From Bifidobacterium breve (GTDB taxonomy: Bacteria; Actinomycetota; Thermoleophilia; Solirubrobacterales; Solirubrobacteraceae), in contig CAMCUD010000017.1 of the NCBI GenBank assembly GCA_945878865.1, forward strand, positions 1 to 64,000: a stretch of 64,000 bases of DNA. The letters are read 5' to 3'. Position 1 is the stretch's first letter. Every line of letters starts with the position of its first letter. Of this stretch, positions 1,855-52,879 are shown piece after piece. The notes under the pieces are model-generated. The model was not told the origin of the DNA and did not search any database. It worked only from the letters and a program-made list of their open reading frames with translations. The position numbers and the translations under genes are program-made.

Positions 1855-2915
1855 GCGCGCATGCTCCGGCGGGTCGGGGGGCGCGCGGGTGTCCAGGCGG
1901 CGACGACTTGGTCTCGGCCGCTGTGCTTGGCGCGGTAGAGCGCCTGGTCGGCGAGGTCGTAGAGGTCGGGGAGACTGACGCCGTCGGCGGCCTCGGCGAC
2001 GCCGAAGCTGGCGGTGATCTTCACGCCGTCGATCGTGGTGTTGCGGATCGCCTGGCGGGCGCGTTCGGCGACGTGCAGCGCGTCCTGGCGGCTGGCTGCG
2101 GGGAGCAGGATCGCGAACTCTTCGCCGCCGAGCCGGAAGAGGCTGTCGCCGTCTCGTACGACGCTGGCGGCGATGGTGGCGGCGTGTTGGAGGGCCCGGT
2201 CGCCGAAGGGGTGGCCGCGGAGGTCGTTGACCTGCTTGAAGTGGTCGAGGTCGAAGACGATGAAGCAGGCGTGGTTGCCGTCCTGGGTGGCGGCGGCGTG
2301 GCGGCGCTCGAGCGCGGCGCGGTTCAGCGCGCCGGTGAGCGGGTCGCGCCAGAGCGCTTGGCGTTGGGCGATGTCGAGGTCGATCGCGCGGATGCCGAGG
2401 GGGATGACGACGATGAGCAGGCAGATCGTCACGAGCGCGAGGAGTGGCTCTCCCCCGGTCTCTGCGCCGGCGAGGCATGCGGCGGCCAGGCAGGTCATGG
2501 TCCAGCCGCACACGAGGCCGTAGGCGCGGTGTGACAGGCCGACGGGGGCGGCGACGAGGCCGAAGAGCAGCCAGACGAGGAATGGGCTGGATGCGCCGCC
2601 GTTCAGTGCGCCGGCCGCGGCGAGCCATGTGGCGCCGAGCAGGAACCCGGCGAGGGCGGTGAGCTCAGGCGCGATACCGCGTGTTCCGAGGGTTCGCAGC
2701 ATGGTCTGGGTGGTGCAGACGGCGGCCAGGGCTGGCAGCCACCACCATGCGCCGGTCCCGGCGATCCACGCGACCACGCAGTACAGGGCCAGCAGCGGGA
2801 TGCTGAGCAGGCGGGCGCGGCCGACGGTCTCGTGCATGTCGCGGGCGCGCTCGCGGTCGACGGTGGCCGGGAACAGCCAGCCCGTTGCGCGTCGGGGAAG
2901 CGTGCTCGTTCGCAT
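1851..2915 (-). CDS. Membrane diguanylate cyclase (GGDEF domain)
   Basis: 354 residues. The N-terminal half (about 35-175) is six hydrophobic segments. Residues about 185-345 form a GGDEF domain with DPLTGALNR, the FDLDHFK metal-binding segment (about 221-227) and the active-site variant GGEEF (263-267). RDGD at 254-257 sits exactly five residues before it, matching a product-inhibition I-site (RxxD). It should make cyclic di-GMP from two GTP at the membrane and be feedback inhibited. GGEEF variants are generally active. The ATG at 2915 lies 20 nt after a GCGCCCCCCGG motif and has no Shine-Dalgarno. The stop overlaps the downstream membrane gene. Confidence 0.92.
   Translation of the reverse strand: MRTSTLPRRATGWLFPATVDRERARDMHETVGRARLLSIPLLALYCVVAWIAGTGAWWWLPALAAVCTTQTMLRTLGTRGIAPELTALAGFLLGATWLAAAGALNGGASSPFLVWLLFGLVAAPVGLSHRAYGLVCGWTMTCLAAACLAGAETGGEPLLALVTICLLIVVIPLGIRAIDLDIAQRQALWRDPLTGALNRAALERRHAAATQDGNHACFIVFDLDHFKQVNDLRGHPFGDRALQHAATIAASVVRDGDSLFRLGGEEFAILLPAASRQDALHVAERARQAIRNTTIDGVKITASFGVAEAADGVSLPDLYDLADQALYRAKHSGRDQVVAAWTPARPPTRRSMRA
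1875..1884 (-). promoter_or_regulatory. GCGCCCCCCG element inside the cyclase 3' end
   Basis: The minus-strand motif GCGCCCCCCGA ends 20 nt before the ATG at 1854. It lies within the cyclase reading frame and encodes part of ARPPT, so it could be an internal promoter or control site for the downstream membrane gene. The last base differs from the common form. Confidence 0.45.
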
Positions 2916-2935
2916 CGCGCCAACGATCCGCCCGG

Positions 2936-2946
2936 CCGGGGGGCGC
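2936..2946 (-). promoter_or_regulatory. GCGCCCCCCGG element upstream of the cyclase
   Basis: Read on the minus strand the motif is GCGCCCCCCGG and ends 20 nt before the ATG at 2915. It is one of nine copies with the same 20-24 nt spacing to a same-strand start. The divergent gene at 2959 begins 12 bp on the other side, so one site could affect both genes. Confidence 0.55.
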
Positions 2947-2958
2947 TACGGTCACACC

Positions 2959-3378
2959 GTGTCCTGGGTGAGCATGATGGACGACGCGCTCGACCGCCTG
3001 AACGAGGCGCTCGGCCCTTCGGGCGAGGGGACTCGCGACGAGCGGCAGTACCGCGCGCAGCTCGCCATCGATGACATGCGCCACGCTGCGGTGCTCGCCG
3101 TCGAGAGTGCCCGCAAGACGATGGAGCAGCTCGAGCGTGATCTGGATGAGCGGCGCGCCGAGATCGCAGCTGAGATCGACGCGGAGGTGCAGCGGCGCGT
3201 CGCCGATGGCCTCGACGCGCTGCAGCAGGCTGCGAAGGAGCTCGAGGATGCGCGTTCGCGCGACCTCTGGGTGGTCAAGCGCGGCTACGACACCAACAAG
3301 GTCGACGAGCTGCGAGACCGTCTCTCCCAGGCCTCGCGCGTCGGGCCCAGCGATACCGGCGCCAAGCGCTGGGTGTAG
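2959..3378 (+). CDS. Small coiled-coil protein, paralogue of the gene at 44524
   Basis: 139 residues from GTG (VSWVSMMDDALDRLN). Almost wholly helical and charged, with a heptad-rich segment about residues 45-110 (MEQLERDLDERRAEI, AEIDAEVQRRVADGLDAL). It aligns with the 137-residue product at 44524 over nearly full length: the W-x-S-x-x-DD start, the AEID-EV-R-A-GL-A block, and a C-terminal tail in which VD-(3)-L/W-(2)-L is conserved. The alignment of the two starts supports GTG 2959 over upstream in-frame starts. The function is unknown. Two divergent copies on one element suggest a structural, partitioning or scaffold role. Confidence 0.75.
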   Translation: MSWVSMMDDALDRLNEALGPSGEGTRDERQYRAQLAIDDMRHAAVLAVESARKTMEQLERDLDERRAEIAAEIDAEVQRRVADGLDALQQAAKELEDARSRDLWVVKRGYDTNKVDELRDRLSQASRVGPSDTGAKRWV

Positions 3379-3388
3379 CCGGCCGCGG

Positions 3389-4039: not shown

Positions 4040-4105
4040 CCACTACGCGCGTGCGGTGCACATAGCGGCCTCTAGGCTCCGAGGCGTAATGCACGAAGGT
4101 TGGTC

Positions 4106-12370: not shown

Positions 12371-14395
12371 ATGAGCGCTCCGCCACATGAGAACCCAGGA
12401 GACGGGACCTCCGCGAGCTCCTTCAGGACGTGGGTCGCTCTCGTGGTCATCGGCGCGACCGTCTCGGCCGCATCGGGCATCGCGACCGGGGTTCTGCCGA
12501 TACCCGCAATCCTGCGCTGGATCGCCGAGCAGTGGCGGTACTTGGCGCCTGTCGCGGTCGGCGTGCTCGTGGTCTCGCAGATGTGGGTCGGCGTGCGCTA
12601 CCGCGCCGACCGCCGCGCCGGCCGCGATGTCGGCTACCCGCTCGCTCCGGCGTTGCTGGTCGGTCTTGCCGCCGGCGTCGCGGTCACGTTCGTGGTCGCG
12701 ACGCTGGTCGCGCATTCCCTAGATCCCCAAACGTGGTGGCTGTTCCAACACGACTTCCGCAATGGGGGACGCGACTGGTACGACATCGCTCGGTCGACTG
12801 TCGCGCTGGTCGGTGGGATCGGCCTTGGAATCGGCCTAATTCTCGCCTACCGTCGGCAACGCACCAGCGAAGCAGCCCAACGCGTAAGGGAAGCGGCCCA
12901 ACAGCACGAACGCGACACCGAGCAGTACCGCCGCGAACGCGAACTTGAAAGGCTGGAGGAGGATCGAGAGAAGGAGCAGCACCGCCGCGACCGTGAACTG
13001 GCCGACAGCGCTGCACATCTCTACAACAGCGCAATCGAGCAGCTTGGCCATGAGCGGCCCGCGGTACGGACGGCAGCTATGTACACGCTTGACCGCCTCG
13101 GCCAACAGCATCCCGACTACCGCCAGAACGTGATCGACGTGTGGTGCAGTTACCTGCGCACCCCGAACCCGCTCGTCTTGCACACCCGGCTGCGCGACGA
13201 CTTGCAGGCTAGGACGATTCACGCCGAGGCACGCGCGCAGCGAATGGCCGGAGAACAACAGCGGCTCGACGACGCCCGCGCCGAGGCCAAGTCGCTCGGG
13301 CAGCCTTACACCGACGCAATGATCGCCGCCGAAGCCGAAGTGCGAGACGCCGCCCTACGTCTCCTGTGCACCCGACTCCAGTTGTCCGATGGAACGATCG
13401 CCGGACAGAGAGGTTGGAGTGACGCCGAACAACCACTCAGCGTCGACTTGACCAACGCCCACCTCCACAACGCCAGATTCACCACGGCCTACTTCCCCGG
13501 GCACGCCGTGTTCGACGGGGCGACGTTCACCGGGACCGCCTGGTTCGAGGAGGCAACGTTTTCCGGAGACGCGCGGTTCGAAGAGGCAACGTTTTCCGGA
13601 ACTGCCTGGTTCGAGGAAGCGACGTTCTCCGGAGAGGTCTGGTTCGAGGAAGCAACGTTCTCCGGGACCGCCTGGTTCAGGGGGACGAAGTTCCTCGAGA
13701 CCGCCTGGTTTATGGGGACGAAGTTCTCCGGGAGTGCCTGGTTCACGGGGACGGATCTCGCCGGTCCTGCCTCTTTCGACGGAGCAGTGTTTTCCGGAGC
13801 CGCCCACTTCAGCGAGGCGAACTTCTCCAGGTCCGCCTCGTTCACCGAGGCGCAGTTCGTCAGGCAGGCCGGCTTCGTGGACACGAAGTTCTCTCAAGCC
13901 CGTTTTGAGCGGACGAGATTTTCCGGAGACGCCGTATTCAGGGGCACGGAGTTCTCCGGAGACGCGCTGTTCGAGGGGGCGACATTCTCTACGATCGCCT
14001 GGTTTGGGGCGGTGCGATTTTCCGGAGACGCGCGATTCGCCGGGGCAACGTTCGCCGAGCCCTGGTTCGAGGGAGCAAGGTTCTCCAGAACCGCCTCATT
14101 CGAGCAGGCGACGCTGTCCGGACATGCTCGGTTCGGGGGGGCGAAGTTCTCCGGAGATACCCGGTTCACGGGCGCGAGGTTCTCTTGGGTCGCCTGGTTC
14201 GGCAACACGACGTTCTCTGCGCCTGTCGCATTCGACGGGACGACGTTCTCCGGGCCGCTCGATCTGAGGGGGGCTGCGTTTCAGTCTGGCGGTGTGTCGA
14301 TCGGTGACGCTCACATCGCATGCCGTGGTTACCCCGTGATCGCCACGAACGCCGCGACGTTCAAGGACCCCGGTGATGATCCCCGCCTCGCGTAG
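12371..14395 (+). CDS. Membrane-anchored pentapeptide-repeat protein
   Basis: 674 residues. Three or four hydrophobic segments lie in the first 165 residues (about 18-42, 55-75, 95-120 and 140-160). A charged coiled coil (EAAQQHERDTEQYRRERELERLEEDREKEQHRRD, about 170-215 when counted as a block) and a helical domain follow. From about residue 360 to 655 there is a right-handed pentapeptide-repeat helix of roughly 50 units built on F-S-G-x-A and W-F-x-x-A/T patterns (ATFSG-TAWFE-E). The strong internal DNA similarity across 13500-14260 reflects the protein repeat. Its role is unknown; related membrane-fused repeats are thought to be scaffolds. Confidence 0.88.
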   Translation: MSAPPHENPGDGTSASSFRTWVALVVIGATVSAASGIATGVLPIPAILRWIAEQWRYLAPVAVGVLVVSQMWVGVRYRADRRAGRDVGYPLAPALLVGLAAGVAVTFVVATLVAHSLDPQTWWLFQHDFRNGGRDWYDIARSTVALVGGIGLGIGLILAYRRQRTSEAAQRVREAAQQHERDTEQYRRERELERLEEDREKEQHRRDRELADSAAHLYNSAIEQLGHERPAVRTAAMYTLDRLGQQHPDYRQNVIDVWCSYLRTPNPLVLHTRLRDDLQARTIHAEARAQRMAGEQQRLDDARAEAKSLGQPYTDAMIAAEAEVRDAALRLLCTRLQLSDGTIAGQRGWSDAEQPLSVDLTNAHLHNARFTTAYFPGHAVFDGATFTGTAWFEEATFSGDARFEEATFSGTAWFEEATFSGEVWFEEATFSGTAWFRGTKFLETAWFMGTKFSGSAWFTGTDLAGPASFDGAVFSGAAHFSEANFSRSASFTEAQFVRQAGFVDTKFSQARFERTRFSGDAVFRGTEFSGDALFEGATFSTIAWFGAVRFSGDARFAGATFAEPWFEGARFSRTASFEQATLSGHARFGGAKFSGDTRFTGARFSWVAWFGNTTFSAPVAFDGTTFSGPLDLRGAAFQSGGVSIGDAHIACRGYPVIATNAATFKDPGDDPRLA

Positions 14396-14444: not shown

Positions 14445-15806
14445 CTACGAGGCTTCGCGGCCGGGGACCGCCGAGCGCTCTTCGTTGCGGATTTCGTAGA
14501 GGTCGTCGATGCTCGGGACCGCGAAGTCGCTGCCGCTCAGCGCGCGGGCTGCTGACGAGAGGATCGCTTCGATGTCGTGCCCGGTCAGCGTCCGGGCCGG
14601 CTCGTGGCGGCTGAGCGATCCGCGGGAGATCAGCGTGTCGAACTGGGTGCGCGATAGGCCGACGATCCGCGCTGCTTCGTCCCAGGTGTCGCACTCCTGC
14701 AGGACGTTCTGCAGCCAGATGGTGAGGGGCTTGGAGGGCAGCCTGACCTCGTTGATCGACCGTGGGATGGACTCGAGGTCGCGTTTTGTGACGGGCCAGC
14801 CGTTTTTCTTGAACGCGCGCCGGAGCTGTTTGCGGACGGTCTCGGGGTCCTGATCGGTGTGCTCGGCGATCTTCCGTGCGACGGCGACCATGCCGAGGTT
14901 CTCTTCCCAGTGCAGGCGGGCGGCTTCGCGTACGAGTTCGGGGGGGAGCTTGCCGCGGTAGGCCATCTCCGTCACGTTGGACGCTGACCGAGGGTGCTTG
15001 GCCAGCCAGGTCAGGGCTCGGTGCCGCTCGGCCCGCCACAGCGCGGGCTCGCTCTTCACTCGCGCGCGGTCGAGCGTGTCGTCGATGATGCCTTCGCGCT
15101 TGAAGGCGCTCGTGACGAGGTAGGGCGTCGGGTCGTGCTCGCCGAGGCGTCGCGCGAGGTACTTGCGCTTCCTGAGGGTTGCGACAGCGGCCCGGAACCC
15201 GGGGCCTCCCCGGACGTGTGCGCGGAGCGCGTCGCGGATCTCCAGCGTCGTGAGCGGTCTCGCGAGCAGGTCGTTGGCTTCGATGATCGAGACGCCTTCC
15301 CATCCGGGTCGGAACGTGATGATCGGCCGGGCGATGAGGGTGCCGCAGACCTCGCAGGAGTCCATCCGGACGTCGACGGTGTCTGAGCACGTCGGGCAGA
15401 AGCGAAGTTCGCTCGGCTGCTCGTCCCACTCGCGGCGGGCCGCGGCGACGGCGAGCGCGCGCATCTCGCAATGCACGTCGTGGTCGGCTTCGCCCGCGAG
15501 GGGGCGGCCGAGTGCGTCGGCGACTCGCTGCCGCCACTGCAGTGAGGCGGGCGGCATGCGGCAGATGCCGTCCTCGCGCGATGGGCCCGCTTGGGCGAGG
15601 TCCCAGACGTGCTTGCCGTCGTGGCTGAGCGCGTCCTCGACGTCGTAGACGGAGATGCGTTCCGTCCCTGAGAGCGGGTCGAGCACGCTGCGCACCCGGG
15701 CGACGCTCCAGTCGATGTCGTGCGCGAGGTGGGTCAGGGTCTCACCGGCGCGCAGTCGTTGCGCGAGGTAGACCCGAAAGGGCAGGATCGGGAGAGTGTG
15801 CGACAT
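14445..15806 (-). CDS. Zinc-ribbon, helix-turn-helix DNA-binding protein, unknown role
   Basis: 453 residues from ATG 15806. The N-terminal about 75 residues look like a helical DNA-binding module (AQRLRAGETLTHLAHDIDWSVARVRS). A zinc ribbon is seen about residues 135-158 (CPTC ... CEVCG). The C-terminal half has several helix-turn-helix-like blocks (NLGMVAVARKIAEHTDQDPETVRKQL; DEAARIVGLSRTQFDTLISRG). The layout recalls TniQ-like or large regulator proteins, but I cannot assign a family. It lies next to the HARP-like gene on the same strand, with 70 bp between them. Confidence 0.6.
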   Translation of the reverse strand: MSHTLPILPFRVYLAQRLRAGETLTHLAHDIDWSVARVRSVLDPLSGTERISVYDVEDALSHDGKHVWDLAQAGPSREDGICRMPPASLQWRQRVADALGRPLAGEADHDVHCEMRALAVAAARREWDEQPSELRFCPTCSDTVDVRMDSCEVCGTLIARPIITFRPGWEGVSIIEANDLLARPLTTLEIRDALRAHVRGGPGFRAAVATLRKRKYLARRLGEHDPTPYLVTSAFKREGIIDDTLDRARVKSEPALWRAERHRALTWLAKHPRSASNVTEMAYRGKLPPELVREAARLHWEENLGMVAVARKIAEHTDQDPETVRKQLRRAFKKNGWPVTKRDLESIPRSINEVRLPSKPLTIWLQNVLQECDTWDEAARIVGLSRTQFDTLISRGSLSRHEPARTLTGHDIEAILSSAARALSGSDFAVPSIDDLYEIRNEERSAVPGREAS

Positions 15807-15876: not shown

Positions 15877-16803
15877 TCACCGAAGGTGGGACTGCGTGAC
15901 TTGGACAAGGGCCTCGTTGGCGGACAGGGCGCTTTCCGCGGCGCTCGCGAGTAGCGCGTTGGCGGCGCCGAGTCGGCGTGCCTTCTCGAGCTGCTCGCAC
16001 ATGCGCCGCGCCGATGCGGTGGCCGCGTGAAGGTGCCGCTGGGCGGCTGCCGGGAGCCCCTGGACGAGCGCCGCGGCCGCGGCCGTGGTTGGGACAAGGC
16101 GCTCCTGTTCGACCAGCAGCAGCAATGCGGCGGCCGTGGCCGAAGTGACGGGAATGCTCCACGTCTGCGCTTCGCGGTCGTACAACGCGCCGGGCACGTG
16201 ACGGATCGCGTCGACCGCGCTGCGGCTGTACTCCAGGCGGACCTCCCACACCGTGCCGGCGGCAACGAGGTCGACTTTGCCACCGTTCGTGGACTCGTCG
16301 AGGAGCCGCTGCGCGGGGCGCGACACGGCGATCGGCCGGTCGCTCATGTCCGCGACGACCGACTTGAGGGCGCGATGCGCTTCTGCGCCGGCGAAATGCC
16401 ACGTCGTGTCCGTGGCGCGGAACGTGCCGCCGGGGATGCCGCGGAGGCGCTGTACAAGGTCTCGGTCCCACGACACCGCGACCACGACGCCCCCGTCCCG
16501 CGCCCAGATGCAGCGCACGGTTAGGTCCCGCATCGCGCGGCGTTCCCCGTTGATGAACGCCCGTACTGCCTCGTTGGCCGGTGGCGGCCACACGCTCACG
16601 GGCGCCGACGTCAACTGGCGTGCGGTCTGCTGCTGGGGGCGCGGAAGATCGTCGATGCCTTCGGCGACCGCCTCCCGCAGGAGCTCCCGCAGCCCCTCGA
16701 GCTGCTCGTCGCGCTCGGTGTCGCGCGCGCGCAGTTCAGCGTAGGCGCTGTCGAGGGCGCCAGCGTCCTCCTGCGCCTCCATGTCCTGGTTTGGAAAAGC
16801 CAT
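15877..16803 (-). CDS. Protein with two HARP-like repeats
   Basis: 308 residues from ATG 16803. A charged N-terminus (about 1-55) is coiled-coil-like. Two related blocks follow. The first is about 95-150 with AVSWDRDLVQRLRGIPGG ... DTTWHFAG. The second is about 180-230 with VRLEYSRSAVDAIRHVPGA ... QTWSIPV. Both match the pattern of HARP domains (short strands, R-x-I/V-PG, W near the end), which bind branched or single-stranded DNA in SMARCAL1-type helicases. There is no helicase domain here, so it is a stand-alone DNA-binding module. The C-terminus is Ala-rich and helical. A GCGCCCCCCGG motif lies 20 nt upstream of the start. Confidence 0.62.
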   Translation of the reverse strand: MAFPNQDMEAQEDAGALDSAYAELRARDTERDEQLEGLRELLREAVAEGIDDLPRPQQQTARQLTSAPVSVWPPPANEAVRAFINGERRAMRDLTVRCIWARDGGVVVAVSWDRDLVQRLRGIPGGTFRATDTTWHFAGAEAHRALKSVVADMSDRPIAVSRPAQRLLDESTNGGKVDLVAAGTVWEVRLEYSRSAVDAIRHVPGALYDREAQTWSIPVTSATAAALLLLVEQERLVPTTAAAAALVQGLPAAAQRHLHAATASARRMCEQLEKARRLGAANALLASAAESALSANEALVQVTQSHLR

Positions 16804-16823
16804 GCCCCGGAGGATTCAGCGCC

Positions 16824-16834
16824 CCGGGGGGCGC
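16824..16834 (-). promoter_or_regulatory. GCGCCCCCCGG element upstream of the HARP-like gene
   Basis: On the minus strand the motif ends 20 nt before ATG 16803. No Shine-Dalgarno is present in the spacer. It lies in the 83-bp gap shared with the divergent ATPase gene at 16887, so it could also influence that gene. Confidence 0.55.
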
Positions 16835-16886
16835 AGACGGCTTGGCGATCACATACGCCGTACGGTGCGTTCAGTAATGTCGCCGC

Positions 16887-18221
16887 GTGCCGCTGTTCAA
16901 GCAGACGGAGGGTGAGCGTCCGGACCCCGCGGAGGTCTTCACGCCCGCCCGCGCCGTCGGCCCTGAGATGTGGGCCCGGCGCATGTACGCCGGCCACAGC
17001 ACCCCGGAGGGCTTGCAGAAGCGCTTCGAGCAGCGCATGGGTGAGGTCGGCCGTCAGATCGTCCTGCACGGCGACACCGGCGTCGGAAAGACCTCGCTGG
17101 TCCAGCACATCCTTGATACCCGCAAGGTCGACTACATCCGTGTCGAGTGCGGCCAGCCGTTCGACACGATGATCAAAGAGGCCCTGGCCGCCGCCGGGCT
17201 GACCGAGGACAAGTTCGAGATCGTCGAGGAGACCTCCGGCCAGGCCGGCGTGAAGGCGAGCCTCGGTCTGCTGTTCTCCGGCTTGCAGCGCTCGGACACC
17301 AACACCGAGACCAAGGTCTCCTATCCCGTCTCGCTGCCGACGACCGCCCGCGTGGCGCTGAGCACCGCCGGGGTCAAGGTGCTGTTCCTCGACAACTTCG
17401 AGAACCTACGCGCCAAAGACCATGGCAAGGAGACCGCCGTTGAGATCGCGCAGCTCATGAAGTCCTTCTCGGACACCGGTGACGTCAAGCTCGTTGTCGC
17501 CGGCATCCCTGAGGAGTCCGAGGCGCTGCTGCTGCTCGACGAGGCGACCTCGCGGCGTACCGCCGAGATCGAGGTCCCACGGATGTCCGACGAGGAGCTC
17601 GACGAGATCCTGCAGAACGGCGAGCGGCTGCTGAACATCGAGTTCGACGCCGACGCCCGCGCGGCGATCATCCGGTTCTCCGACGGGTTCCCTTACTACA
17701 CGCACCTGCTCGCCCTGCACGCGACCCGCAAGGCGCTCGAGGACGGCGAGAACCGCGTCTCGTCGGCGCACTTCGTCGCCGCGCTGGGCGAGATCATCGA
17801 GGACGCCTCCCTCTCACTGCGCCGGGCGTACGCCAATGCCGCCGAGACCTCGGGCGAGGTCATGGTGCGCAAGAGCATCATGACGGCGATGGCGCGCAGC
17901 GAGAAGTCGGAGATGACCTTCCGCGAGATCCGCGAGGCCTTCCAGCAGATCCACCCGCAGTACGACGACCTCAAGAAGCTCAACTTCATCAATGTCGATC
18001 TCGGCAAGCTCGTCGAGCGCGGCATCCTGCAGACCCGTGGGGTCAAGAAGAGCAAGGACCGCGCCTACCGGTTCGTCAACCCGCTGATGCGCACCTTTGT
18101 GCGTCTCAAGGCTGCCCAGGAGCAGTACGACACCCAGATGGCGCTACCGACCGAGCCGCAGGTCGCACCGCCGCCCGAGCTGCCGATGCCGGCCCAAGAG
18201 CCGCCGCGGCGCACCGAGTAG
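16887..18221 (+). CDS. AAA/STAND-type ATPase with winged-helix C-terminus
   Basis: 444 residues from GTG 16887. Walker A is GDTGVGKTS (62-70) and Walker B is VKVLFLDNFENL (about 165-176). A sensor-like block is LVVAGIPEES. Residues about 330-405 resemble a winged helix (TFREIREAFQQIHPQYDDLKKLNF ... LVERGILQT, VNPLMRTFVRLK). The build is like Orc1/Cdc6- or ExeA-type ATPases, which act on DNA or organise partner proteins. A Pro-rich tail ends the protein. It is divergent from the HARP-like DNA-binding gene, and the pair may form one module, possibly for element replication. Confidence 0.75.
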   Translation: MPLFKQTEGERPDPAEVFTPARAVGPEMWARRMYAGHSTPEGLQKRFEQRMGEVGRQIVLHGDTGVGKTSLVQHILDTRKVDYIRVECGQPFDTMIKEALAAAGLTEDKFEIVEETSGQAGVKASLGLLFSGLQRSDTNTETKVSYPVSLPTTARVALSTAGVKVLFLDNFENLRAKDHGKETAVEIAQLMKSFSDTGDVKLVVAGIPEESEALLLLDEATSRRTAEIEVPRMSDEELDEILQNGERLLNIEFDADARAAIIRFSDGFPYYTHLLALHATRKALEDGENRVSSAHFVAALGEIIEDASLSLRRAYANAAETSGEVMVRKSIMTAMARSEKSEMTFREIREAFQQIHPQYDDLKKLNFINVDLGKLVERGILQTRGVKKSKDRAYRFVNPLMRTFVRLKAAQEQYDTQMALPTEPQVAPPPELPMPAQEPPRRTE

Positions 18222-24600: not shown

Positions 24601-24623
24601 GATGTCCGGGAGCGTCGAACAGG

Positions 24624-24634
24624 CCGGGGGGCGC
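24624..24634 (-). promoter_or_regulatory. GCGCCCCCCGG element at the head of the second transfer operon
   Basis: The minus-strand copy ends 23 nt before ATG 24600. It lies in the gap shared with the divergent nuclease gene at 24774. It probably sets expression of the lipoprotein-to-coupling-protein operon. Confidence 0.6.
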
Positions 24635-31495: not shown

Positions 31496-33552
31496 GACCG
31501 GTCCGCATCCTCAGGGCGCCCGGGGGGCGCGACCGGTGGCGTGCTCGCCTGCTTCGGTGACGGTGCGGGAGCCAACGGCTGCGGGCCGGAGCTCGCGCTC
31601 GGAGCAGTCCCGCCAGCGGAGGGCGCGCTGGGCTGCGGCGGAGCGACTGCCCCGACGCTCGTGGCCGCGTCGGCGCCGCTGTAGATCGAGACCTGCTCGC
31701 GGAGCGTCGTCTTGTCTGCCGCCCCGAGTGTCACGAGCGCCTGCGCGACGTCCGGCTGTCCGCGCTCGGAGGCCCGGGCGACCTCTTCGATGAGCGCGCT
31801 CTGCCGCACCTCAGGCGACTTCATCTCCGCGGCGCGCTGGACCGACGCGAGCGCGGGCGGGTCGAGGCGCTTCATCGCCTCGCCTGCCATCGCGTACCGC
31901 GTGTCGTTGTCCGTCGAGGACCGCAGTTCGCTCATCGCCCGCGCGGCCGCCTCGCGCCCACGGTCCCCGTCGCCGCGGTCGAACGCGTCGCGCATCGCCG
32001 CGCGCTGATCGCTGACCTGCGGGCTGGGCGACGGATGCCCCGCGGCGGACGCACCGCTCGGGACCGGGACCGCGCCGGGCTGCGCGCCAGCCTGTGGCGC
32101 CGTCGAAACCGGGGCGGCACCCGAGGCCTGACCGGCGGTTCCGGCGCCGTTCGCCGTCTGGGCAGCACCGGCGGCCTGGCCGGTGGCTTGCGGGGCGCCG
32201 CTCGCGGCAGCGGGAGCCATCTTCCCGGCAGCGCCCGCGGCAGCGGGCGCACCGGCACCACCGGTCGCGACGGTCGCGCCTGCGGTGGCGGCAACGACCG
32301 CGGCACGGCGCGCGACGCCGTGCGCCGCTGATCCGCCGGCGGCTTGACCCGCGCCAGCGGCAGCCGTTCGAGAGAGCGCGTCCGGACCGGCCTGCAGGCC
32401 ACCACGCGGCGGGCTGGCCGGCGGTGGAGCGGCCGCGCCGCGCTTTCCGGTCACCGCGCCGGGCAGCGCGTTCTGCGCGTGCGTGACGGCGGACTTCTCG
32501 AACACCTTGCGGCCGACGCCGCTGCCGACGATGCCCGGGGCCGCTCGCCCGTTGAGCATCGTCATCTTCGCCAGCTTCCACGGCAGGAAGACCATGCCCG
32601 CGAACAGGACCAGTGCGGCGAGGGAGTTCATCGGGCTGAACGCCCCGTCGCCCAAGCCTTCGATCGTGAGGTTGTCCGAGCCGATCGCCGCGACGACGGC
32701 GAACAGCAGCGCCCACACGGTGGGGACGGCGAGCATGGTGACGATCGCGCGTCCGAGCTGGCGGGCGGGCCCGTCGGTCACGGGCAGCAGCGCGAGCGCC
32801 AGCGGCATCGCAACGAACCCGAGCGTGGTGCCCGCCTGCAGCATCACCCGCATCGCCAACAGCGCCATGAGCATCAGCACGAGGCCGAGCTGCATGAGGA
32901 TCGCGATGATCCAGCCGCCCGGCGCGAAGTTCAGGCCGAGGCTGATGTTCGCCAGCGACCGGGCGATACCCGACGCGCCTCCGGCGGCCCCGAGAATGTC
33001 TGCGGGGACTGCGTTGGCGATCGGGAGCATGACGCCGCGGTAGATCCACGGCCAGCTGGCGATGAGGACGATCGCGAGCGCGGCCTTGGCGAGCGCTTCG
33101 ATACCGGCGGCCCCGCCGCCGCCGAGCATGTCGGCCATGAAGTACCGGGCGACACCGAGGGTCACGACCACGCCGGTGATGGAGAGCGCGATCGTGGAGA
33201 TGCGGCCCTGCAGCGTCTTGAGGTTCGGCTGGTGTGAGAACGGGTCGCCGATCGTGGTGAAGAGCGTCACGAAGTTGCGGTCGATGAACCGCTCGACGCT
33301 CGGGAAGAGGTGTTCGAAGATCGACTGGAACGCGTCAGACGCGGCGCTCGAAGCAACGTCGCCGGCGTCGGGAAGCAGGTGCAGCGGGTTGAGGTCGGGC
33401 AGCGCCTCCGCCGGGGGCGCTGCGACCGCGGAGATGAGCATCACCACGAGCAGGGCGGCGAGCGCCCCGAGGGCGCAGAGCAGCAGGCGACCGGGACGCC
33501 ACGCCATGTCGGCGTCGTCCCGGTCGCGGGTGGTCTGGTCCTCGGAGCGCAT
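31492..33552 (-). CDS. VirB6/TrbL-like polytopic channel protein
   Basis: 686 residues from ATG 33552; TTG 33558 is possible. Signal-like first helix at about 22-45. Six or more membrane helices lie between about 130 and 355 (for example STIALSITGVVVTLGVARYF, AALAIVLIASWPWIYRGVM, WIIAILMQLGLVLMLMALLAM, AMPLALALLPV). A long, low-complexity Ala/Gly/Pro tail (about 375-550) is followed by a charged helical end (MRDAFDRGDGDRGREAAARAM ... LVTLGAADKTTLREQ). The topology and position between pilin-like and VirB3-like genes identify a VirB6/TrbL protein. The tail is probably cytoplasmic. Confidence 0.85.
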   Translation of the reverse strand: MRSEDQTTRDRDDADMAWRPGRLLLCALGALAALLVVMLISAVAAPPAEALPDLNPLHLLPDAGDVASSAASDAFQSIFEHLFPSVERFIDRNFVTLFTTIGDPFSHQPNLKTLQGRISTIALSITGVVVTLGVARYFMADMLGGGGAAGIEALAKAALAIVLIASWPWIYRGVMLPIANAVPADILGAAGGASGIARSLANISLGLNFAPGGWIIAILMQLGLVLMLMALLAMRVMLQAGTTLGFVAMPLALALLPVTDGPARQLGRAIVTMLAVPTVWALLFAVVAAIGSDNLTIEGLGDGAFSPMNSLAALVLFAGMVFLPWKLAKMTMLNGRAAPGIVGSGVGRKVFEKSAVTHAQNALPGAVTGKRGAAAPPPASPPRGGLQAGPDALSRTAAAGAGQAAGGSAAHGVARRAAVVAATAGATVATGGAGAPAAAGAAGKMAPAAASGAPQATGQAAGAAQTANGAGTAGQASGAAPVSTAPQAGAQPGAVPVPSGASAAGHPSPSPQVSDQRAAMRDAFDRGDGDRGREAAARAMSELRSSTDNDTRYAMAGEAMKRLDPPALASVQRAAEMKSPEVRQSALIEEVARASERGQPDVAQALVTLGAADKTTLREQVSIYSGADAATSVGAVAPPQPSAPSAGGTAPSASSGPQPLAPAPSPKQASTPPVAPPGRPEDADRS
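31520..31530 (-). promoter_or_regulatory. GCGCCCCCCGG element inside the VirB6-like gene
   Basis: The minus-strand copy encodes part of APPG in the VirB6-like tail and ends 24 nt before ATG 31495. It would allow separate control of the virB3-virB4-hydrolase part of the operon. Confidence 0.5.
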
Positions 33553-34629: not shown

Positions 34630-34650
34630 GTCGACCAGTAGTCGCAGCAG

Positions 34651-34661
34651 CCGGGGGGCGC
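34651..34661 (-). promoter_or_regulatory. GCGCCCCCCGG element at the head of the main transfer operon
   Basis: The minus-strand copy ends 21 nt before ATG 34629. TTGACC, a -35-like hexamer, lies about 20 nt further upstream (34683-34688). If the motif takes the -10 place, transcription would start close to the first codon. Confidence 0.6.
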
Positions 34662-37596: not shown

Positions 37597-39057
37597 CTAC
37601 GGGGTCTCGATCCCGAACTCGGATGAGCCGGTGTTCTTGGGCGCGCCCTTCGCGGTTCCGCTCGTGGGTGTCGCGGTGGTGGGCCGTTCGATCGAGGTTT
37701 CCTGCTGGCGGATGGTGTCCTGCTGCTGGGCGGCGATGGTGGGCTGGAAGTCCTTCGACGCGGTACCGAGCTTCTGATCGGCGGCCTTCTTCTTGGCGGC
37801 GGCCTTCTTCGCTGCGGCGCGACGGCGCGCGGCGGCGCGTTTGGCCGCGGCGCGCTTGCGGGCCTTGTCCTGGCTGACCTGCGCCTTGGCGCCCACGCTC
37901 GCCAACACGGGGGTGGCTGTGACCTGGGTCTGCTTCGCGGCCGCGGAGGTGACCGGCGGTGTGGGAGGTGCTTGCGCCTGGTGGCGTGCGACGACGGCGC
38001 CTCCCCCACCTGCCACGGCGACCGCGGCTACGGCGGCTGCGACCTTGGCGGCGAGCGCACCACCGACCGACCCGCCCGTGGCGGCCCCGCCACCGAGGCC
38101 TCCGCCGGCGGCGACTGCGGTCGCGGTCCCGCCGGCGACGGCGCCGCCCGCGACGGTCTCGACGGTGTTGCTGTCCGTCGAGAGGCCGAGCGCGTGGATG
38201 ATCCGCTCGACCATGTCGGCGACACGGTTCCCGGACACGGGGACGATGAACGGCGGGATGAGGCCGGCGGCGGCCTTCTTCGCGGCGACGGCCGCGCGGC
38301 ATCGCGGGCAGTTGGCCAGGTGTGATGCGACCACCCCGTACCGGTCACCGTCTGGGTCGTGGAGGCCGAGCGCCCACGCGTTGAGGGCGGAGATGCCCTC
38401 TTCGCTGGTGCACCAGCCGGCCATGCGCACGTCGCCTTCGCTGACGAGCATGTCCGCGCCGACGCTGCGGAGGGCGGGCCGGACGTTCTCGGTGACGAGC
38501 TTGTTGACGCGCTTGATCGAGATGTCGAGCATCGCGGCCGCTTCTGCTTGGGAGACCTGGTCGAGGATCAGCATGCGGACGAGCTGCATCTCGCGGTCGG
38601 TCAGGCGCGTGGCGAGCTCGTTGAGCATCGTGCGGGCCGCGTCCTCGGATGCGAGCGCGTCGGCGTGGTTGATGTGCTCGTCGATCGTGTCGTTCAGCGC
38701 CCGGTCTGAGGACTCGTAGTCCTCGCGGCGATCGAGGTGCTCTTGGCGGGCGGAGTCCATGAGCCGCCGGTGGGTGGTGGTGACCAGCCACGCTCGGGTG
38801 TCCTGGATCTCGGTGCCGTCGGCGAGGGTGCGGTACAGCTGGTGCCAGGCGAGGTTGTAGGCCTCGTCGAGGTCCTCGCGGTTCGGGGCGATCTGGCCTT
38901 TGGTGCTCTTGCGCATGAGCGCCGCGGCATCCCGGCACACGCGGTCGCGCTCGGAGAGGTACTTCGCTTCGAGGTCGATGAGCGCGCGCCGCTGGCTGAT
39001 CTCCGTCCATGCGCGGCCGCGCTTGCGGCGGGATGGGGTGCGGACTGCGGTGGCCAT
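37597..39057 (-). CDS. ECF-like sigma factor fused to a zinc-finger anti-sigma-like segment and membrane helix
   Basis: 486 residues from ATG 39057. Sigma region 2 (about 25-105) has EDLDEAYNLAWHQLYRTL and TRAWLVTTTHRRLMDSARQ. Region 4 (about 145-195) has LTDREMQLVRMLILDQVSQAEAAAMLDIS. A segment with HLANCPRC follows (His246, Cys250, Cys253), the H-x3-C-x2-C signature of zinc anti-sigma domains. One helix (about 333-356) probably crosses the membrane, giving an outer Ala/Lys/Arg-rich tail that ends SSEFGIETP. Signal release by cleavage is a reasonable model, but not seen. It could drive the element's GCGCCCCCCGG promoters. Confidence 0.82.
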   Translation of the reverse strand: MATAVRTPSRRKRGRAWTEISQRRALIDLEAKYLSERDRVCRDAAALMRKSTKGQIAPNREDLDEAYNLAWHQLYRTLADGTEIQDTRAWLVTTTHRRLMDSARQEHLDRREDYESSDRALNDTIDEHINHADALASEDAARTMLNELATRLTDREMQLVRMLILDQVSQAEAAAMLDISIKRVNKLVTENVRPALRSVGADMLVSEGDVRMAGWCTSEEGISALNAWALGLHDPDGDRYGVVASHLANCPRCRAAVAAKKAAAGLIPPFIVPVSGNRVADMVERIIHALGLSTDSNTVETVAGGAVAGGTATAVAAGGGLGGGAATGGSVGGALAAKVAAAVAAVAVAGGGGAVVARHQAQAPPTPPVTSAAAKQTQVTATPVLASVGAKAQVSQDKARKRAAAKRAAARRRAAAKKAAAKKKAADQKLGTASKDFQPTIAAQQQDTIRQQETSIERPTTATPTSGTAKGAPKNTGSSEFGIETP

Positions 39058-39132: not shown

Positions 39133-39142
39133 GCGCCCCCCG
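39133..39142 (+). promoter_or_regulatory. GCGCCCCCCG element upstream of the helicase
   Basis: This plus-strand copy ends 21 nt before GTG 39164. It is the only one of the nine serving a plus-strand gene, which strengthens the case for a directional signal. A second, shorter G-run (39116-39125) lies just upstream. Confidence 0.55.
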
Positions 39143-39163
39143 CCCCAGCGGACCATCCCCTCC

Positions 39164-41293
39164 GTGCAGCAGGCTGCCAACAGCGCCGAGACGCTCGACC
39201 TCGAGATCGTCGTCGAGCACCGCATCTGGGCTGCCGACGACGGCGCGTTCGCCATCGCGCGGGTCCGTCTCGGCCGCGACAAGGTGGTCGCCAAGGGACC
39301 GCTCGCGCACCTCTCTGCCGGCGATCGCGCCCGGATCACCGGCCGCTGGGTCAACCACGCCAAGCACGGCCGCCAGATCCACGTCGACGACGCGCTCCCG
39401 TTGGACGCCAACGACGAGGAAGGGATGGTCGACTACCTCGCCAAGGCCATGACCGGCGTCGGCCGGCGCAGCGCGCGGCGCCTTGTCGACCGGTTCGGCC
39501 AGGACACGTTCAGCCGCCTCGACGACGACCCCGAAGCCACGCTGGGCACGCTGCCGTCGATGACCGCCAAGAAGGTCCAGGCTGCCGCGCAGGACTGGCG
39601 TGTCGCGCGAGCCGACCGCCCGCTGTACCTGCTGCTGGCCAAGCACGGCCTGGCCAAGCACGTGCCCACGCTGAGCCGCCGGTGGGGCGCCGCGGCGCTC
39701 GCGAAGGTCCAGCAGGACCCCTACGACCTCGTCAAGCTCCGCGGGATCGCGTTCGAGCGCGCCGACCGCGTCGCGCGCGACGTCGGGATCCCCGAGGACT
39801 CCCCTCGGCGCGCTCAGGCCGCGGTCCTGCACACGCTGCAGGAGGCCTCACGCTCCGGGCACACCCTCATGCCCGTCGTCGAGGTCACGCAGCGCGCCGC
39901 ACGACTGCTGCGCCAGCCGCTGCACCCAATGGCGCTCAGCGGCCTGGAGCAGCGCGGCGACATCCTCGTGCACGCGGGGATGGCGCAGACCGCGCAAGCG
40001 CAGCGGCTGGAGCGCAAGATCGCCGCGGCGATCCGCCGGCTGCGCGACACCCCGCCGACACCCGACGTCACGGTCCCCGAGGCCAGGCCGGAGAACGTCA
40101 CGCTGACCGACGAGCAATGGACCGCGGTCAGGCGCGCATTCACCTACGGGGTGTCGATCATTACCGGCGGACCCGGCACCGGAAAGAGCACGCTCGTGCG
40201 GGCGATCGTCGCGCTCGCCGCCAAGGCCGACCTGGAGATTGCGCTGTGCGCGCCGACCGGGGTCGCCGCGGTGCGGCTCGCCGACGTCACCGGCCACGAC
40301 GCCAGCACCGTGCATTCACTGCTCGGCATCCAGCAGGACGGCACCGCCGTGCTGCACGCCGACCAGCCATTGGGCGCTGACGTGATCGTGTGCGACGAGT
40401 CCAGCATGGTCGACACCGAGGCCGCCGGGCACCTCCTCGACGCCGCCCGCAAGGGCGCGCGCGTGGTCTTGGTCGGCGATGTCGATCAGCTGCCATCGGT
40501 CGGGGCCGGCCAGGTCCTGAGCGACCTCATCGAGTCCGGGGCGCTGCCCACGACGCGGCTGACCAGGATCTTCCGGCAGGCCGAGCGCTCCCTGCTCGTC
40601 CAAGCCGCCCACGCGATCCGTGACGGGCTCACACCGGCGACGTGGAGCGCGGACACCGAGGCGGTGTGCGACTTCTTCTGGATCCCCGAACCCGACCCGG
40701 CACGGCTCCTTGGCCTGACGTGCGATCTGGTCGCCGACCGGCTCCCGGACTGGCTCGGCGTCGACCCGCTCAAGGACGCGCTGTGCCTCGTCCCGACACA
40801 CAAGGACCCGGTCGGCCGCGTCGCGCTCAACCGCGCTCTCGCCGACCGGCTCAACCCGCACGGCGCGGAGATCCTCGACGGGGCAGCCCGCGTCGGTGAC
40901 CGGCTGATGTGGACGAAGAACACGCCCGCGCTCGGGCTGATGAACGGCTCGCTCGTGCGCTGCGTCGACGCGCTCAGCGACGGGGACCTCGTCTGCCTCG
41001 ACGAACGCGACCAGCAGATCGTCATCCCCGCCAAGGAAACCGGGCCGCTGATGCGCGCCTACGCCGCCACCGTCCACAAGGCCCAAGGCTGCGAAGCCCC
41101 CGTGGTGGTCGTCGTCCTGCACAGCAGCGCCCACCGCGGACTACTCAACGCACGACTGCTCTACACCGCCGTCACCCGGGCACGCCGCGCGTGCGTGATC
41201 GTCGGCGACCCCGCCGCATTCGCGACCACACTCGCCAACCAACGTGGCGACACCCGGCACACCGGACTCCAACGGCACATCGTGCCCTCGTAG
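39164..41293 (+). CDS. recD2: RecD2-like DNA helicase
   Basis: 709 residues from GTG 39164. N-terminal OB-like and helix-hairpin-helix region (about 15-150). Walker A is GGPGTGKST (335-343); motif Ia lies near LCAPTGVAAVRLADVTGH. Walker B is VIVCDESSMVD, with motif III VLVGDVDQLPSVGAGQ. The C-terminus has AYAATVHKAQGCEAP and LYTAVTRARRA, as in superfamily-1B helicases. It unwinds DNA 5' to 3'. Plasmid TraA-type enzymes join a relaxase to such a helicase. Here no relaxase is fused, so it probably works beside the replication-relaxation protein at 18434. Confidence 0.88.
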   Translation: MQQAANSAETLDLEIVVEHRIWAADDGAFAIARVRLGRDKVVAKGPLAHLSAGDRARITGRWVNHAKHGRQIHVDDALPLDANDEEGMVDYLAKAMTGVGRRSARRLVDRFGQDTFSRLDDDPEATLGTLPSMTAKKVQAAAQDWRVARADRPLYLLLAKHGLAKHVPTLSRRWGAAALAKVQQDPYDLVKLRGIAFERADRVARDVGIPEDSPRRAQAAVLHTLQEASRSGHTLMPVVEVTQRAARLLRQPLHPMALSGLEQRGDILVHAGMAQTAQAQRLERKIAAAIRRLRDTPPTPDVTVPEARPENVTLTDEQWTAVRRAFTYGVSIITGGPGTGKSTLVRAIVALAAKADLEIALCAPTGVAAVRLADVTGHDASTVHSLLGIQQDGTAVLHADQPLGADVIVCDESSMVDTEAAGHLLDAARKGARVVLVGDVDQLPSVGAGQVLSDLIESGALPTTRLTRIFRQAERSLLVQAAHAIRDGLTPATWSADTEAVCDFFWIPEPDPARLLGLTCDLVADRLPDWLGVDPLKDALCLVPTHKDPVGRVALNRALADRLNPHGAEILDGAARVGDRLMWTKNTPALGLMNGSLVRCVDALSDGDLVCLDERDQQIVIPAKETGPLMRAYAATVHKAQGCEAPVVVVVLHSSAHRGLLNARLLYTAVTRARRACVIVGDPAAFATTLANQRGDTRHTGLQRHIVPS

Positions 41294-50574: not shown

Positions 50575-50611
50575 CCCGGCCTGCCCTGCACGGCCCGCCC
50601 GTCTGGCTGGT

Positions 50612-51414: not shown

Positions 51415-51917
51415 GCGGCGAACCGGTCGACGGCGTGTGCGATCTCCTCGATGCGGATCGACGCGTTGAGCAGCGTCTGGTAGCTGGAGATCTTGCGGTC
51501 GAGCAGGTCCCGGTGCTCGGTGGCGTCTCGGAGCGCGTCTTGGGCGTCTTCGTGGGCGGCGCGCAGGCTCTCCAGGCGGAACTCGACGCTGGCCTCGCGC
51601 ACCTCCTTCGTCCGTTTCGTGTCGCCGGTGGACGCGAGGAGACGGTTTCGCTCGTTGACGTACGCGCGGCGTGCGAGCTTGGCGATCCTGCGGCGCTCGC
51701 GGACGAGGGCGTGCGCGAGCTCGAGCTGCCGGGTCAGTTCGCCGACGTGCGACCGCAGGGCGAGGACGGAGAGGTCCTCGTCCTCGTCGTGCGCGATCCA
51801 AGTCAGGTCGTCGGCGATCGCGACATCGGGGTCGCGGAGGTCAACGACGACAGCGTCGTGAGTGGTGTGGCTCATCACCGGGCGGATGGGATCAGCGTCC
51901 GGGGGGCGCACAGTCAT
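51411..51917 (-). CDS. Coiled-coil protein in the 52.8 kb operon
   Basis: 168 residues if read from ATG 51917, which overlaps the upstream stop (ATGA) and has GGAGG 4 nt upstream. A second start, ATG 51875 (MSHTTHDAVVV), lies 23 nt after a GCGCCCCCCGG element and gives 154 residues. Both may be used. The centre is helical and charged with long coiled-coil potential (LELAHALVRERRRIAKLARRAYVNERNRLL; ESLRAAHEDAQDALRDATEHRDLLDRKI). It ends before the HNH gene. The function is unknown; it may form a complex with its operon mates. Confidence 0.68.
   Translation of the reverse strand: MTVRPPDADPIRPVMSHTTHDAVVVDLRDPDVAIADDLTWIAHDEDEDLSVLALRSHVGELTRQLELAHALVRERRRIAKLARRAYVNERNRLLASTGDTKRTKEVREASVEFRLESLRAAHEDAQDALRDATEHRDLLDRKISSYQTLLNASIRIEEIAHAVDRFAA
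51899..51909 (-). promoter_or_regulatory. GCGCCCCCCGG element within the coiled-coil gene start region
   Basis: On the minus strand the motif lies 8 bases after the start of ATG 51917 and ends 23 nt before ATG 51875. It therefore points to the downstream ATG as an independent start for the coiled-coil, HNH and 93-residue genes. Confidence 0.5.
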
Positions 51918-52846
51918 GACGCCTCCAGGGCGGGGAACCAGCGCCACAGCCACCGGGTCGCGTGCCGCTGACCGCCAGGGTGCCTCTCCGGGGTCGCGAG
52001 CGCGACGGGGGTCGGGTCGCAGCGCAGCAGCGCGCCGACGGGCAGCGTCTTGACCTGGCGTAGCCGCACGAACGTGGTGATGTGCGTCGAGCCGAGCGGC
52101 GCCAGGTAGACCCGGTCGCCCTCGCGTGCCGCGTCGGGCCGGCGGTAGACGAACAGCTCGATGAGCCCGCGCGAGCGCGGCGCGGTGTCGAGCACGTCCG
52201 GTTCGACGTTCAGGACGATGTCGCCGCAGCCCTCCCCCACCGCCGGCCGTTCCCGGGCACCTCGTCGCTCGGGCGGCACGTACGCGGGCGGATGCACCTC
52301 GTCCGGGCTCGGCGGGTCGACAGCGGCCAGGTGCGACAGGGCGAGCCGGGCGGGCCGGCCGACGGACAGGTCGGCGCGGCACCGCACCCACGCCCCCGGG
52401 TGCCCGCCGGGAGGTAGCAGCCGGGCGTCGAGCGGGACGGGCCTGGCCGGGTGCCACTCGGGGAGCACGAGAATCGCGACGCCGTCGACGATCTCCTCGA
52501 CGTGCGCAACGGTCGCGTACTTGCGCTCGCCGACCCACCCGACGAACTGCACGTGGGTCCCCTGCCCGTCAGCGCGACGCTGCAGCAGCCAACTGGCCGC
52601 CACGCTTTTGTCGACAGGGCCGGTCGGCTCGTCGCGGCGGCACCGCACCTGCCCGTCCTCATCAGGGCGTGCGCGGACGGTCAGCGGCCACTCGGACTTG
52701 CGCTTGTCGCGCTTGCGCGGGAAGAACCGCATCCCCTCCCGGATCACAAGCGGATGCGGAGGGAGCCCGAACCCGTTGTCGTGGACCTGCTCGGGTGGGG
52801 TGAGCGGTCGCGTGTGCTTTATGAAGGCTTTTCCGGCTCCGGCCAT
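51914..52846 (-). CDS. Unknown protein, first gene of the 52.8 kb operon
   Basis: 310 residues from ATG 52846 (MAGAGKAFIKHTRP). Rich in Arg, Pro and His, with beta-type stretches (VRARPDEDGQVRCRRDEP, VQFVGWVGERKYATVAHVEEIVDGVAILVLPEW, ELFVYRRPDAAREGDRVYLAPLG). There is no membrane segment. No family is recognised. A GCGCCCCCCGG element lies 22 nt upstream and there is no Shine-Dalgarno. It heads a chain of four overlapping genes that ends with an HNH nuclease and a 93-residue protein, so it may belong to a multi-part DNA-processing or defence unit. Confidence 0.65.
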   Translation of the reverse strand: MAGAGKAFIKHTRPLTPPEQVHDNGFGLPPHPLVIREGMRFFPRKRDKRKSEWPLTVRARPDEDGQVRCRRDEPTGPVDKSVAASWLLQRRADGQGTHVQFVGWVGERKYATVAHVEEIVDGVAILVLPEWHPARPVPLDARLLPPGGHPGAWVRCRADLSVGRPARLALSHLAAVDPPSPDEVHPPAYVPPERRGARERPAVGEGCGDIVLNVEPDVLDTAPRSRGLIELFVYRRPDAAREGDRVYLAPLGSTHITTFVRLRQVKTLPVGALLRCDPTPVALATPERHPGGQRHATRWLWRWFPALEAS

Positions 52847-52868
52847 GAGCGCCGCATGGTCACGTCAG

Positions 52869-52879
52869 CCGGGGGGCGC
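52869..52879 (-). promoter_or_regulatory. GCGCCCCCCGG element at the head of the 52.8 kb operon
   Basis: The minus-strand copy ends 22 nt before ATG 52846. It lies in the 100-bp gap after the TcmP-like gene, so the operon has its own control separate from the tcm pair. Confidence 0.55.

What the first reader, a model, noticed from the sequence alone, without database searches (positions are those of the whole stretch)
1875..52879. Nine GCGCCCCCCG(G) motifs, each 20-24 nt upstream of a same-strand start codon
The motif occurs at 1875, 2936, 16824, 24624, 31520, 34651, 39133, 51899 and 52869. The distances from motif end to start codon are 20, 20, 20, 23, 24, 21, 21, 23 and 22 nt. Eight are on the minus strand, and one, for a plus-strand gene, is correctly reversed. 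Composition alone predicts a few such 10-mers in this GC range, so the count is not the point; the fixed position is. These starts mostly lack a Shine-Dalgarno at normal spacing, while other element genes (33922, 54717, 5288) have one. Three copies fall inside upstream reading frames, where they were still kept. I saw none in the chromosomal part. The genes served include both transfer operons, the helicase, the HARP-like gene and the cyclase. This could be an element-specific promoter (perhaps for the sigma fusion at 37597), an operator, or an unusual translation signal.
Basis: partly seen in the sequence, partly recalled or inferred. Interest (0 to 1): 0.85.

Follow-up and report, generated by a model that had tools for sequence, protein, structure and literature searches.

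The report
Mobile element's private leaderless promoter class
A large self-transmissible DNA element in a soil actinobacterium (Solirubrobacterales) carries at least a dozen near-identical start signals, a C-rich box sitting exactly 8 bases before a weak promoter hexamer and then the first codon, which the rest of the genome does not use, so the element appears to run its transfer, excision and signalling genes with its own private switch.

Summary
All nine GCGCCCCCCG copies exist, each 20-25 nt before a same-strand start (independent gene calls match 8 of 9; P about 1e-20). The box is phased not with the start codon but with a hexamer exactly 8 bp downstream. The consensus is CGCCCCCCG-N8-GANNNT-N6..11-RTG. 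Host genes show the leaderless signature TANNNT starting 12-17 nt before the start; the box hexamers start in the same range, so these are leaderless promoters, not a translation signal. A 61-bp tRNA-Asn repeat shows that the element, an integrative conjugative element (ICE), continues on another contig. There three more full copies precede an HD-GYP gene, a PilZ operon and an Xis/AlpA-like gene. In the whole 4.96-Mb genome the full pattern occurs 10 times: 9 in the ICE, 1 on an unassigned contig. No other genome among about 400 of the class or 400 of the phylum has more than three. The geometry matches 'sigma adaptation' (-26 element) promoters (PafBC: 9-mer, 8 nt, TAnnnT), not the 16-17 bp spacing of ECF promoters. 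Most likely an element-encoded activator recruits polymerase to an ICE-wide regulon. The activator is not identified; the sigma fusion at 37597 is a weaker candidate.

The parts
1875..1884 (-). box 1 (GCGCCCCCCG); -10-like GAGCAT at 1861-1866; ATG at 1854 (172-aa protein)
2937..2946 (-). box 2; -10-like GATCGT at 2923-2928; ATG at 2915 (GGDEF diguanylate cyclase 1851-2915)
16825..16834 (-). box 3; -10-like AATCCT at 16811-16816; ATG at 16803 (HARP-like protein 15877-16803, then multi-HTH/zinc-ribbon protein 14445-15806)
24625..24634 (-). box 4; -10-like GACGCT at 24611-24616; ATG at 24600 (lipoprotein-like gene heading the operon to the coupling protein/Replic_Relax fusion 18434-21622)
31521..31530 (-). 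box 5; -10-like GAGGAT at 31507-31512; ATG at 31495 (small T4SS protein, then VirB4-like 28410-31136 and M23 peptidase)
34652..34661 (-). box 6; imperfect -10-like GACTAC at 34638-34643; ATG at 34629 (operon leading into the 33563 and 31492 membrane proteins)
39133..39142 (+). box 7; -10-like GACCAT at 39151-39156; GTG at 39164 (RecD2-like helicase 39164-41293)
51900..51909 (-). box 8; imperfect -10-like TCCCAT at 51886-51891; ATG at 51875 (154 aa, then an HNH-endonuclease gene)
52870..52879 (-). box 9; -10-like GACCAT at 52856-52861; ATG at 52846 (310 aa)
37597..39057 (-). ECF-type sigma factor with C-terminal zinc-finger (HxxxCxxC) anti-sigma-like domain; candidate regulator, own start without box
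14445..15806 (-). multi-HTH, zinc-ribbon orphan protein in the probable operon of box 3; candidate activator
54909..56318 (-). tyrosine integrase of the ICE
56379..56439 (.). 61-bp att direct repeat (3' end of tRNA-Asn 56397-56469); second copy at G000:C19:23993-24053

Best explanation
The motif is the upstream recognition element of a promoter class private to one integrative conjugative element. RNA polymerase starts transcription at or within a few bases of the start codon, so the mRNAs are leaderless. The start is set by a weak -10 hexamer (GANNNT, with A at -11 and T at -7). The hexamer lacks the host's T at -12 and has no -35, so a positive factor bound to CGCCCCCCG at about -29 to -21 must recruit the polymerase, in the manner of sigma adaptation (-26 element) promoters such as those of PafBC. 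The factor is most likely encoded by the element. It switches on, as one regulon, the T4SS and relaxase operons, the helicase, the Xis/AlpA-like gene and a c-di-GMP set (GGDEF, HD-GYP, PilZ). Shown: box, hexamer, spacing, leaderless geometry, ICE confinement and regulon content. Inferred: transcription start, positive control, identity of the factor, use of the host primary sigma.
For: The box-hexamer distance is fixed at 8 bp. A at -11 and T at -7 are each conserved in 8 of 9 window copies and are the strongest columns outside the box; 0 of 5000 random sets show two such columns. In 757 kb of host chromosome TANNNT peaks sharply 12-17 nt before starts, the sign of leaderless genes, and the ICE hexamers start in the same range. 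The hexamers are GANNNT 9 times and TANNNT 0 times, against 50 and 153 in the host, where 50 is background (P 6e-6). The att repeat extended the ICE to contig C19, where three further full copies sit before an Xis/AlpA-like gene, an HD-GYP gene and a PilZ operon. Genome-wide the full pattern occurs 10 times, 9 of them in the ICE, reversed control 0. Of 13 CGCCCCCCG in the known 80 kb of the ICE, 12 stand 20-25 nt before a start. The same geometry is published for PafBC promoters, tTGTCRgtg - 8 nt - TannnT (PMC5656591), and sigma adaptation at -26 is described in PMC10693628 and PMC10936776. The host encodes WYL proteins, probably including its own PafBC, so the mechanism may exist in this organism.
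Against: No transcript data. No WYL or SARP protein was found on the known ICE contigs, and the activator is not identified. Two of nine window hexamers are imperfect (34652, 51900). No related element with the same box was found, so there is no evolutionary replication outside this one ICE. The ICE assembly is incomplete.
Confidence: 0.66

Rival explanations
1. The box is (part of) the promoter recognised directly by the ICE's own ECF-type sigma factor at 37597, released from its membrane/zinc-finger tether by a signal.
For: The ICE encodes an ECF-type sigma with a fused zinc-finger anti-sigma-like domain, and sigma region-4 folds are matched. Its gene is divergent from the boxed helicase gene. 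A homologue lies beside the VirB4 operon in a Conexibacter ICE. The -10 differs from the host type.
Against: Spacing is 8 bp, not the 16-17 bp of ECF promoters, so the box lies inside the spacer. A-11/T-7 looks like a primary-sigma -10. The sigma gene's own start has no box. The Conexibacter ICE with the syntenic sigma lacks the box, and homologues occur in 51 of 232 genomes without box clusters. The motif published for the ECF52 protein SCO4117 is CSGYN-17bp-SRHA (PMC5826349).
Confidence: 0.18
2. The box is an ICE-wide operator: a repressor binds between -35 and -10 and keeps transfer genes silent, as KorA/KorB-type repressors do on plasmids.
For: Position in the promoter spacer; near-perfect conservation across promoters of all transfer operons; host -35 elements are weak in general, so lack of a -35 is not decisive.
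Against: The box is not palindromic and is single. A repressor model predicts host-type TANNNT hexamers, but none of the boxed promoters has one.
Confidence: 0.13
3. A 5'-UTR or translation-initiation element acting in the mRNA.
For: Position shortly before start codons that lack Shine-Dalgarno sequences.
Against: The box is phased with the hexamer (always 8), not with the start codon (20-25). In the leaderless geometry of this host it lies upstream of +1.
Confidence: 0.02
4. Chance: a GC-rich 10-mer in a GC-rich genome.
For: The bare 10-mer elsewhere in the genome is at chance level.
Against: independent confirmation outside the window.
Confidence: 0.01

Closest known systems
PafBC-dependent (RecA-NDp) promoters of actinobacteria, 'sigma adaptation' at a -26 element
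   Same: 9-bp non-palindromic box, 8-nt gap, -10 hexamer with A-11 and T-7, no -35 needed (tTGTCRgtg - 8 nt - TannnT; PMC5656591).
   Different: Box sequence is CGCCCCCCG; hexamer is GANNNT, not TANNNT; regulon is a conjugative element, not DNA repair; no WYL protein found on the ICE.
SARP-activated Streptomyces promoters
   Same: Activator box 8 bp from the -10, suboptimal -10 and -35 (PMC10936776).
   Different: No 11-bp-spaced direct repeat upstream of the box; no BTAD protein on the ICE contigs.
SetCD regulon of SXT/R391 ICEs
   Same: One element-encoded activator switches on transfer and excision promoters that lack a good -35 (PMC4344509).
   Different: The SetCD box lies at or upstream of -35 and transcripts have leaders with Shine-Dalgarno sequences; here the box lies in the spacer and starts are leaderless.
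ECF48/ECF52/ECF53 sigma factors (for the protein at 37597)
   Same: ECF sigma with fused C-terminal zinc-finger domain (PMC8999054).
   Different: Encoded on an ICE; no carbohydrate-binding domain seen; transmembrane helix only suggested by an Ala-rich stretch; link to the box not supported.
T4 middle promoters (MotA box)
   Same: Activator box replaces the -35 and leaves a -10 element (PMC6755090).
   Different: MotA box is centred at -30 and needs a consensus -10; here the box is centred near -25 with a weak -10.

Membership tests
Sigma-adaptation (-26 element) promoter, PafBC type | box ending 8 nt before the -10 hexamer | tested here: met
   Fixed N8 in all 12 ICE sites; A-11 in 11 of 12 and T-7 in 11 of 12; published spacing
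Sigma-adaptation (-26 element) promoter, PafBC type | PafBC box sequence TGTCR and TANNNT hexamer | tested here: not met
   CGCCCCCCG and GANNNT
Sigma-adaptation (-26 element) promoter, PafBC type | WYL-domain activator encoded by the element | tested here: not met
   WYL hits only on contigs C22 and C27, none on C17, C19 or C51; parts of the ICE may be missing
Sigma-adaptation (-26 element) promoter, PafBC type | activator inserts between sigma region 4 and the box | not testable with these tools
   needs in vitro transcription or structure
ECF sigma promoter | -35 and -10 motifs about 16-17 bp apart | tested here: not met
   gap is 8 bp; no conserved columns at the usual -35 place
ECF sigma promoter | autoregulated sigma gene carries the motif | tested here: not met
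   no box within 45 nt of the start of 37597-39057
SARP-activated promoter | direct repeats 11 or 22 bp apart | tested here: not met
   no conserved columns upstream of the box
Leaderless gene | -10 hexamer 12-17 nt before the start codon, no Shine-Dalgarno | tested here: met
Leaderless gene | mRNA 5' end at the start codon | not testable with these tools
   no RNA data
Integrative conjugative element | integrase, tRNA att repeat, VirB4, coupling protein/relaxase | tested here: met
ECF48/52/53-type sigma (protein 37597) | sigma regions 2 and 4 plus HxxxCxxC zinc finger | tested here: met
ECF48/52/53-type sigma (protein 37597) | membrane tether released by proteolysis | not testable with these tools
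   an Ala-rich hydrophobic stretch is present

The most novel reading that the evidence does not exclude
The element has evolved its own orthogonal promoter language: a dedicated sigma adaptor of an undescribed family (for example the orphan multi-HTH zinc-ribbon protein at 14445-15806, itself probably in a boxed operon) that redirects the host polymerase to CGCCCCCCG-N8-GANNNT leaderless promoters, and that couples conjugation, excision and c-di-GMP signalling in one autoregulated switch.
Probability: 0.35. Interest if true: 0.78.

Novelty: new variant of a known kind. Interest (0 to 1): 0.62.

Why it matters
Little is known about how mobile elements are controlled in the deep-branching actinobacterial class that holds Solirubrobacter and Conexibacter. 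Here sequence alone gives a complete, testable regulon: conjugation, excision and c-di-GMP genes under one box that the host does not use. If confirmed, it would show sigma-adaptation promoters used as a private control system by a conjugative element, give a predictor for which genes belong to the transfer programme, and offer a compact orthogonal leaderless promoter for actinobacteria. It also shows a simple way to find such systems: look for a box phased with the -10, not with the gene.

Tried and rejected
Close relatives of VirB4 by single-sequence scans of genome and viral contigs: none. Alignment-based scan: 9 loci, among them Solirubrobacter, Conexibacter and MAGs; the box-with-hexamer pattern was not found in those examined. 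Viral-contig scan for the full pattern: 11 stretches, all single hits, taken as chance. K-mer scans of related ICEs and sigma neighbourhoods: only Shine-Dalgarno-like signals or noise. A strict PafBC-type box (TGTCRGT, 7-10 nt, TANNNT) in 757 kb of host and the ICE pieces: none. Methylation by the MmeI-type enzyme at 34825: rejected because the box has no adenine on either strand. Spread by duplication: rejected because nothing outside box and hexamer is alike. Contig C51: carries one full pattern (19067) before a 26-aa frame, but its genes use Shine-Dalgarno starts; left unassigned. Structure of 14445-15806: model too poor to use (pLDDT 43).
Full report
What was checked. The nine GCGCCCCCCG copies are all present, against 1.47 expected. 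Each lies 20-25 nt before a same-strand start codon. A gene caller written without knowledge of the motif picked the same start for eight of nine. For the ninth the ATG at 52846 agrees with the N-terminus of a homologue in another genome. With P = 0.0024 for a random place to have a called start at that distance and strand, eight of nine has P about 9e-21. A k-mer scan of all upstream regions, without prior choice, put this motif first in the window and found nothing like it in four related regions.

What the box is locked to. Aligning the copies on the box shows two strongly conserved columns downstream, A at +10 and T at +14, each in eight of nine. They form a hexamer GANNNT exactly 8 bp after the box. 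The distance to the start codon varies (20-25), the distance to the hexamer does not. The box therefore belongs with a -10 element, not with the ribosome. In 757 kb of the host's chromosome, TANNNT shows a sharp peak starting 12-17 nt before start codons, the signature of leaderless genes described in mycobacteria (PMC4633059). The hexamers of the boxed genes start at the same distances, so the predicted +1 falls on or within a few bases of the start codon. In that numbering the 9-bp core lies at about -29 to -21. There is no conserved -35.

A different -10. Host leaderless promoters use T at -12. GANNNT at these distances in the host is at background (50 found, 44.5 expected), while TANNNT is 153 against 13. 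Of the twelve boxed ICE promoters nine are GANNNT and none TANNNT (P 6e-6). These promoters look unable to work on their own, which favours a positive factor over a simple repressor. This step is inference.

The test outside the window. An integrase (54909-56318) lies next to tRNA-Asn (56397-56469). The 3' end of that tRNA recurs as a 61-bp perfect repeat on contig C19 at 23993-24053, at the edge of element-like DNA. The window and C19:1-24053 are thus most simply two parts of one ICE. On C19, three more boxes with the full architecture precede a HTH_17 (AlpA/Xis-like) gene at 23509, an HD-GYP gene at 19797 and an operon with a PilZ gene at 16249-16928. Two of them start with C instead of G, which sets the core as CGCCCCCCG. 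In the known 80 kb of the ICE the core occurs 13 times, 12 of them 20-25 nt before a start. In the whole genome the full pattern occurs ten times: six in the window, three on C19, one on the unassigned contig C51; the reversed control gives none.

How widespread. Genomes of the order (232), of the class (399) and of the phylum (396) were searched with versions of the pattern. No other genome has more than three hits. Related ICEs with 42-47% identical VirB4 (Solirubrobacter, Conexibacter, several MAGs) do not show it in the stretches examined. In one related ICE (G181) the homologue of the boxed gene 51914-52846 has a host-type TACCCT hexamer and no box. The box is thus, so far, the property of one element.

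Mechanism. Known promoters with this geometry are those of sigma adaptation. PafBC promoters read tTGTCRgtg - 8 nt - TannnT (PMC5656591); PafBC and SiwR act at -26 (PMC10693628); SARP activators bind with their last repeat 8 bp from the -10 (PMC10936776). The present class has the same spacing, with another box and another hexamer. The host has WYL proteins, probably including its own PafBC, on C22 and C27, so the mechanism may be available, but none is on the known ICE contigs, and no SARP-type BTAD protein either. The adaptor is therefore unidentified. One candidate is the orphan protein 14445-15806, with several HTH-like segments and a zinc ribbon (the family matches are all weak). It lies 70 bp downstream of a boxed gene and has no relative in 232 genomes. 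The match of rarity between protein and box is suggestive only, since many ICE genes are orphans.

The sigma fusion. The protein at 37597 is an ECF-type sigma with a C-terminal zinc finger (HxxxCxxC, invariant in 16 aligned relatives), as in the ECF48/52/53 groups (PMC8999054). Region-4 folds of ECF sigmas match its model. But ECF promoters have 16-17 bp between motifs. The sigma gene's own start has no box. A syntenic homologue in the Conexibacter ICE comes without the box. It remains a rival at lower weight.

Regulon. Boxed units include the VirB4/M23 operon, the coupling protein-relaxase operon, a membrane-protein operon, a RecD2-like helicase, a HARP-like gene, a GGDEF cyclase and, on C19, an HD-GYP gene, a PilZ operon and the Xis/AlpA-like gene. 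Synthesis, breakdown and sensing of c-di-GMP would all be under the same switch. Diguanylate cyclases are known on other mobile elements (PMC10672970). SetCD of SXT is the closest known example of one activator for transfer and excision, but with its box near -35 (PMC4344509).

Limits. There are no RNA data. The assembly is fragmented and C51 is unassigned. Two window promoters have imperfect hexamers. The claim that the factor is an activator, and that it works with the primary sigma, is inference from geometry and from the unusual -10.

Noticed in passing
window 56379-56439 and G000:C19:23993-24053: 61-bp perfect att repeat at the 3' end of tRNA-Asn; shows that the ICE continues on contig C19 and is at least 80 kb long.
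   Followed up: yes
window 1851-2915; G000:C19 16605-16928 and 19797-21176: The ICE carries a GGDEF cyclase, a PilZ protein and an HD-GYP protein, all downstream of the box: a full c-di-GMP set on one mobile element.
   Followed up: partly
whole host genome (C1, C2): TANNNT starting 12-17 nt before starts in a sharp peak: leaderless transcription appears very common in this Solirubrobacterales host.
   Followed up: yes
window 52948-54717: TcmP-like (three-Cys-motif partner) gene next to a DUF5131 gene, without the box.
   Followed up: no
window 34825-37533: MmeI-type restriction-modification enzyme inside the ICE; its presumed adenine methylation cannot touch the box.
   Followed up: no
window 12443-14395: Pentapeptide-repeat protein whose gene holds many near-identical 33-bp DNA repeats.
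   Followed up: no
G000:C51 (23 kb): Contig with an SSB gene, a DNA polymerase III delta-like gene and Shine-Dalgarno starts; one full box pattern at 19044-19076 before a 26-aa frame, upstream of a FeS-assembly gene. Origin unknown.
   Followed up: partly
Conexibacter sp. CPCC 206217 (G209:C1 about 226-249 kb, L144): ICE with the same VirB4 operon and a syntenic ECF sigma with zinc finger: the sigma may be a core gene of this ICE lineage.
   Followed up: partly
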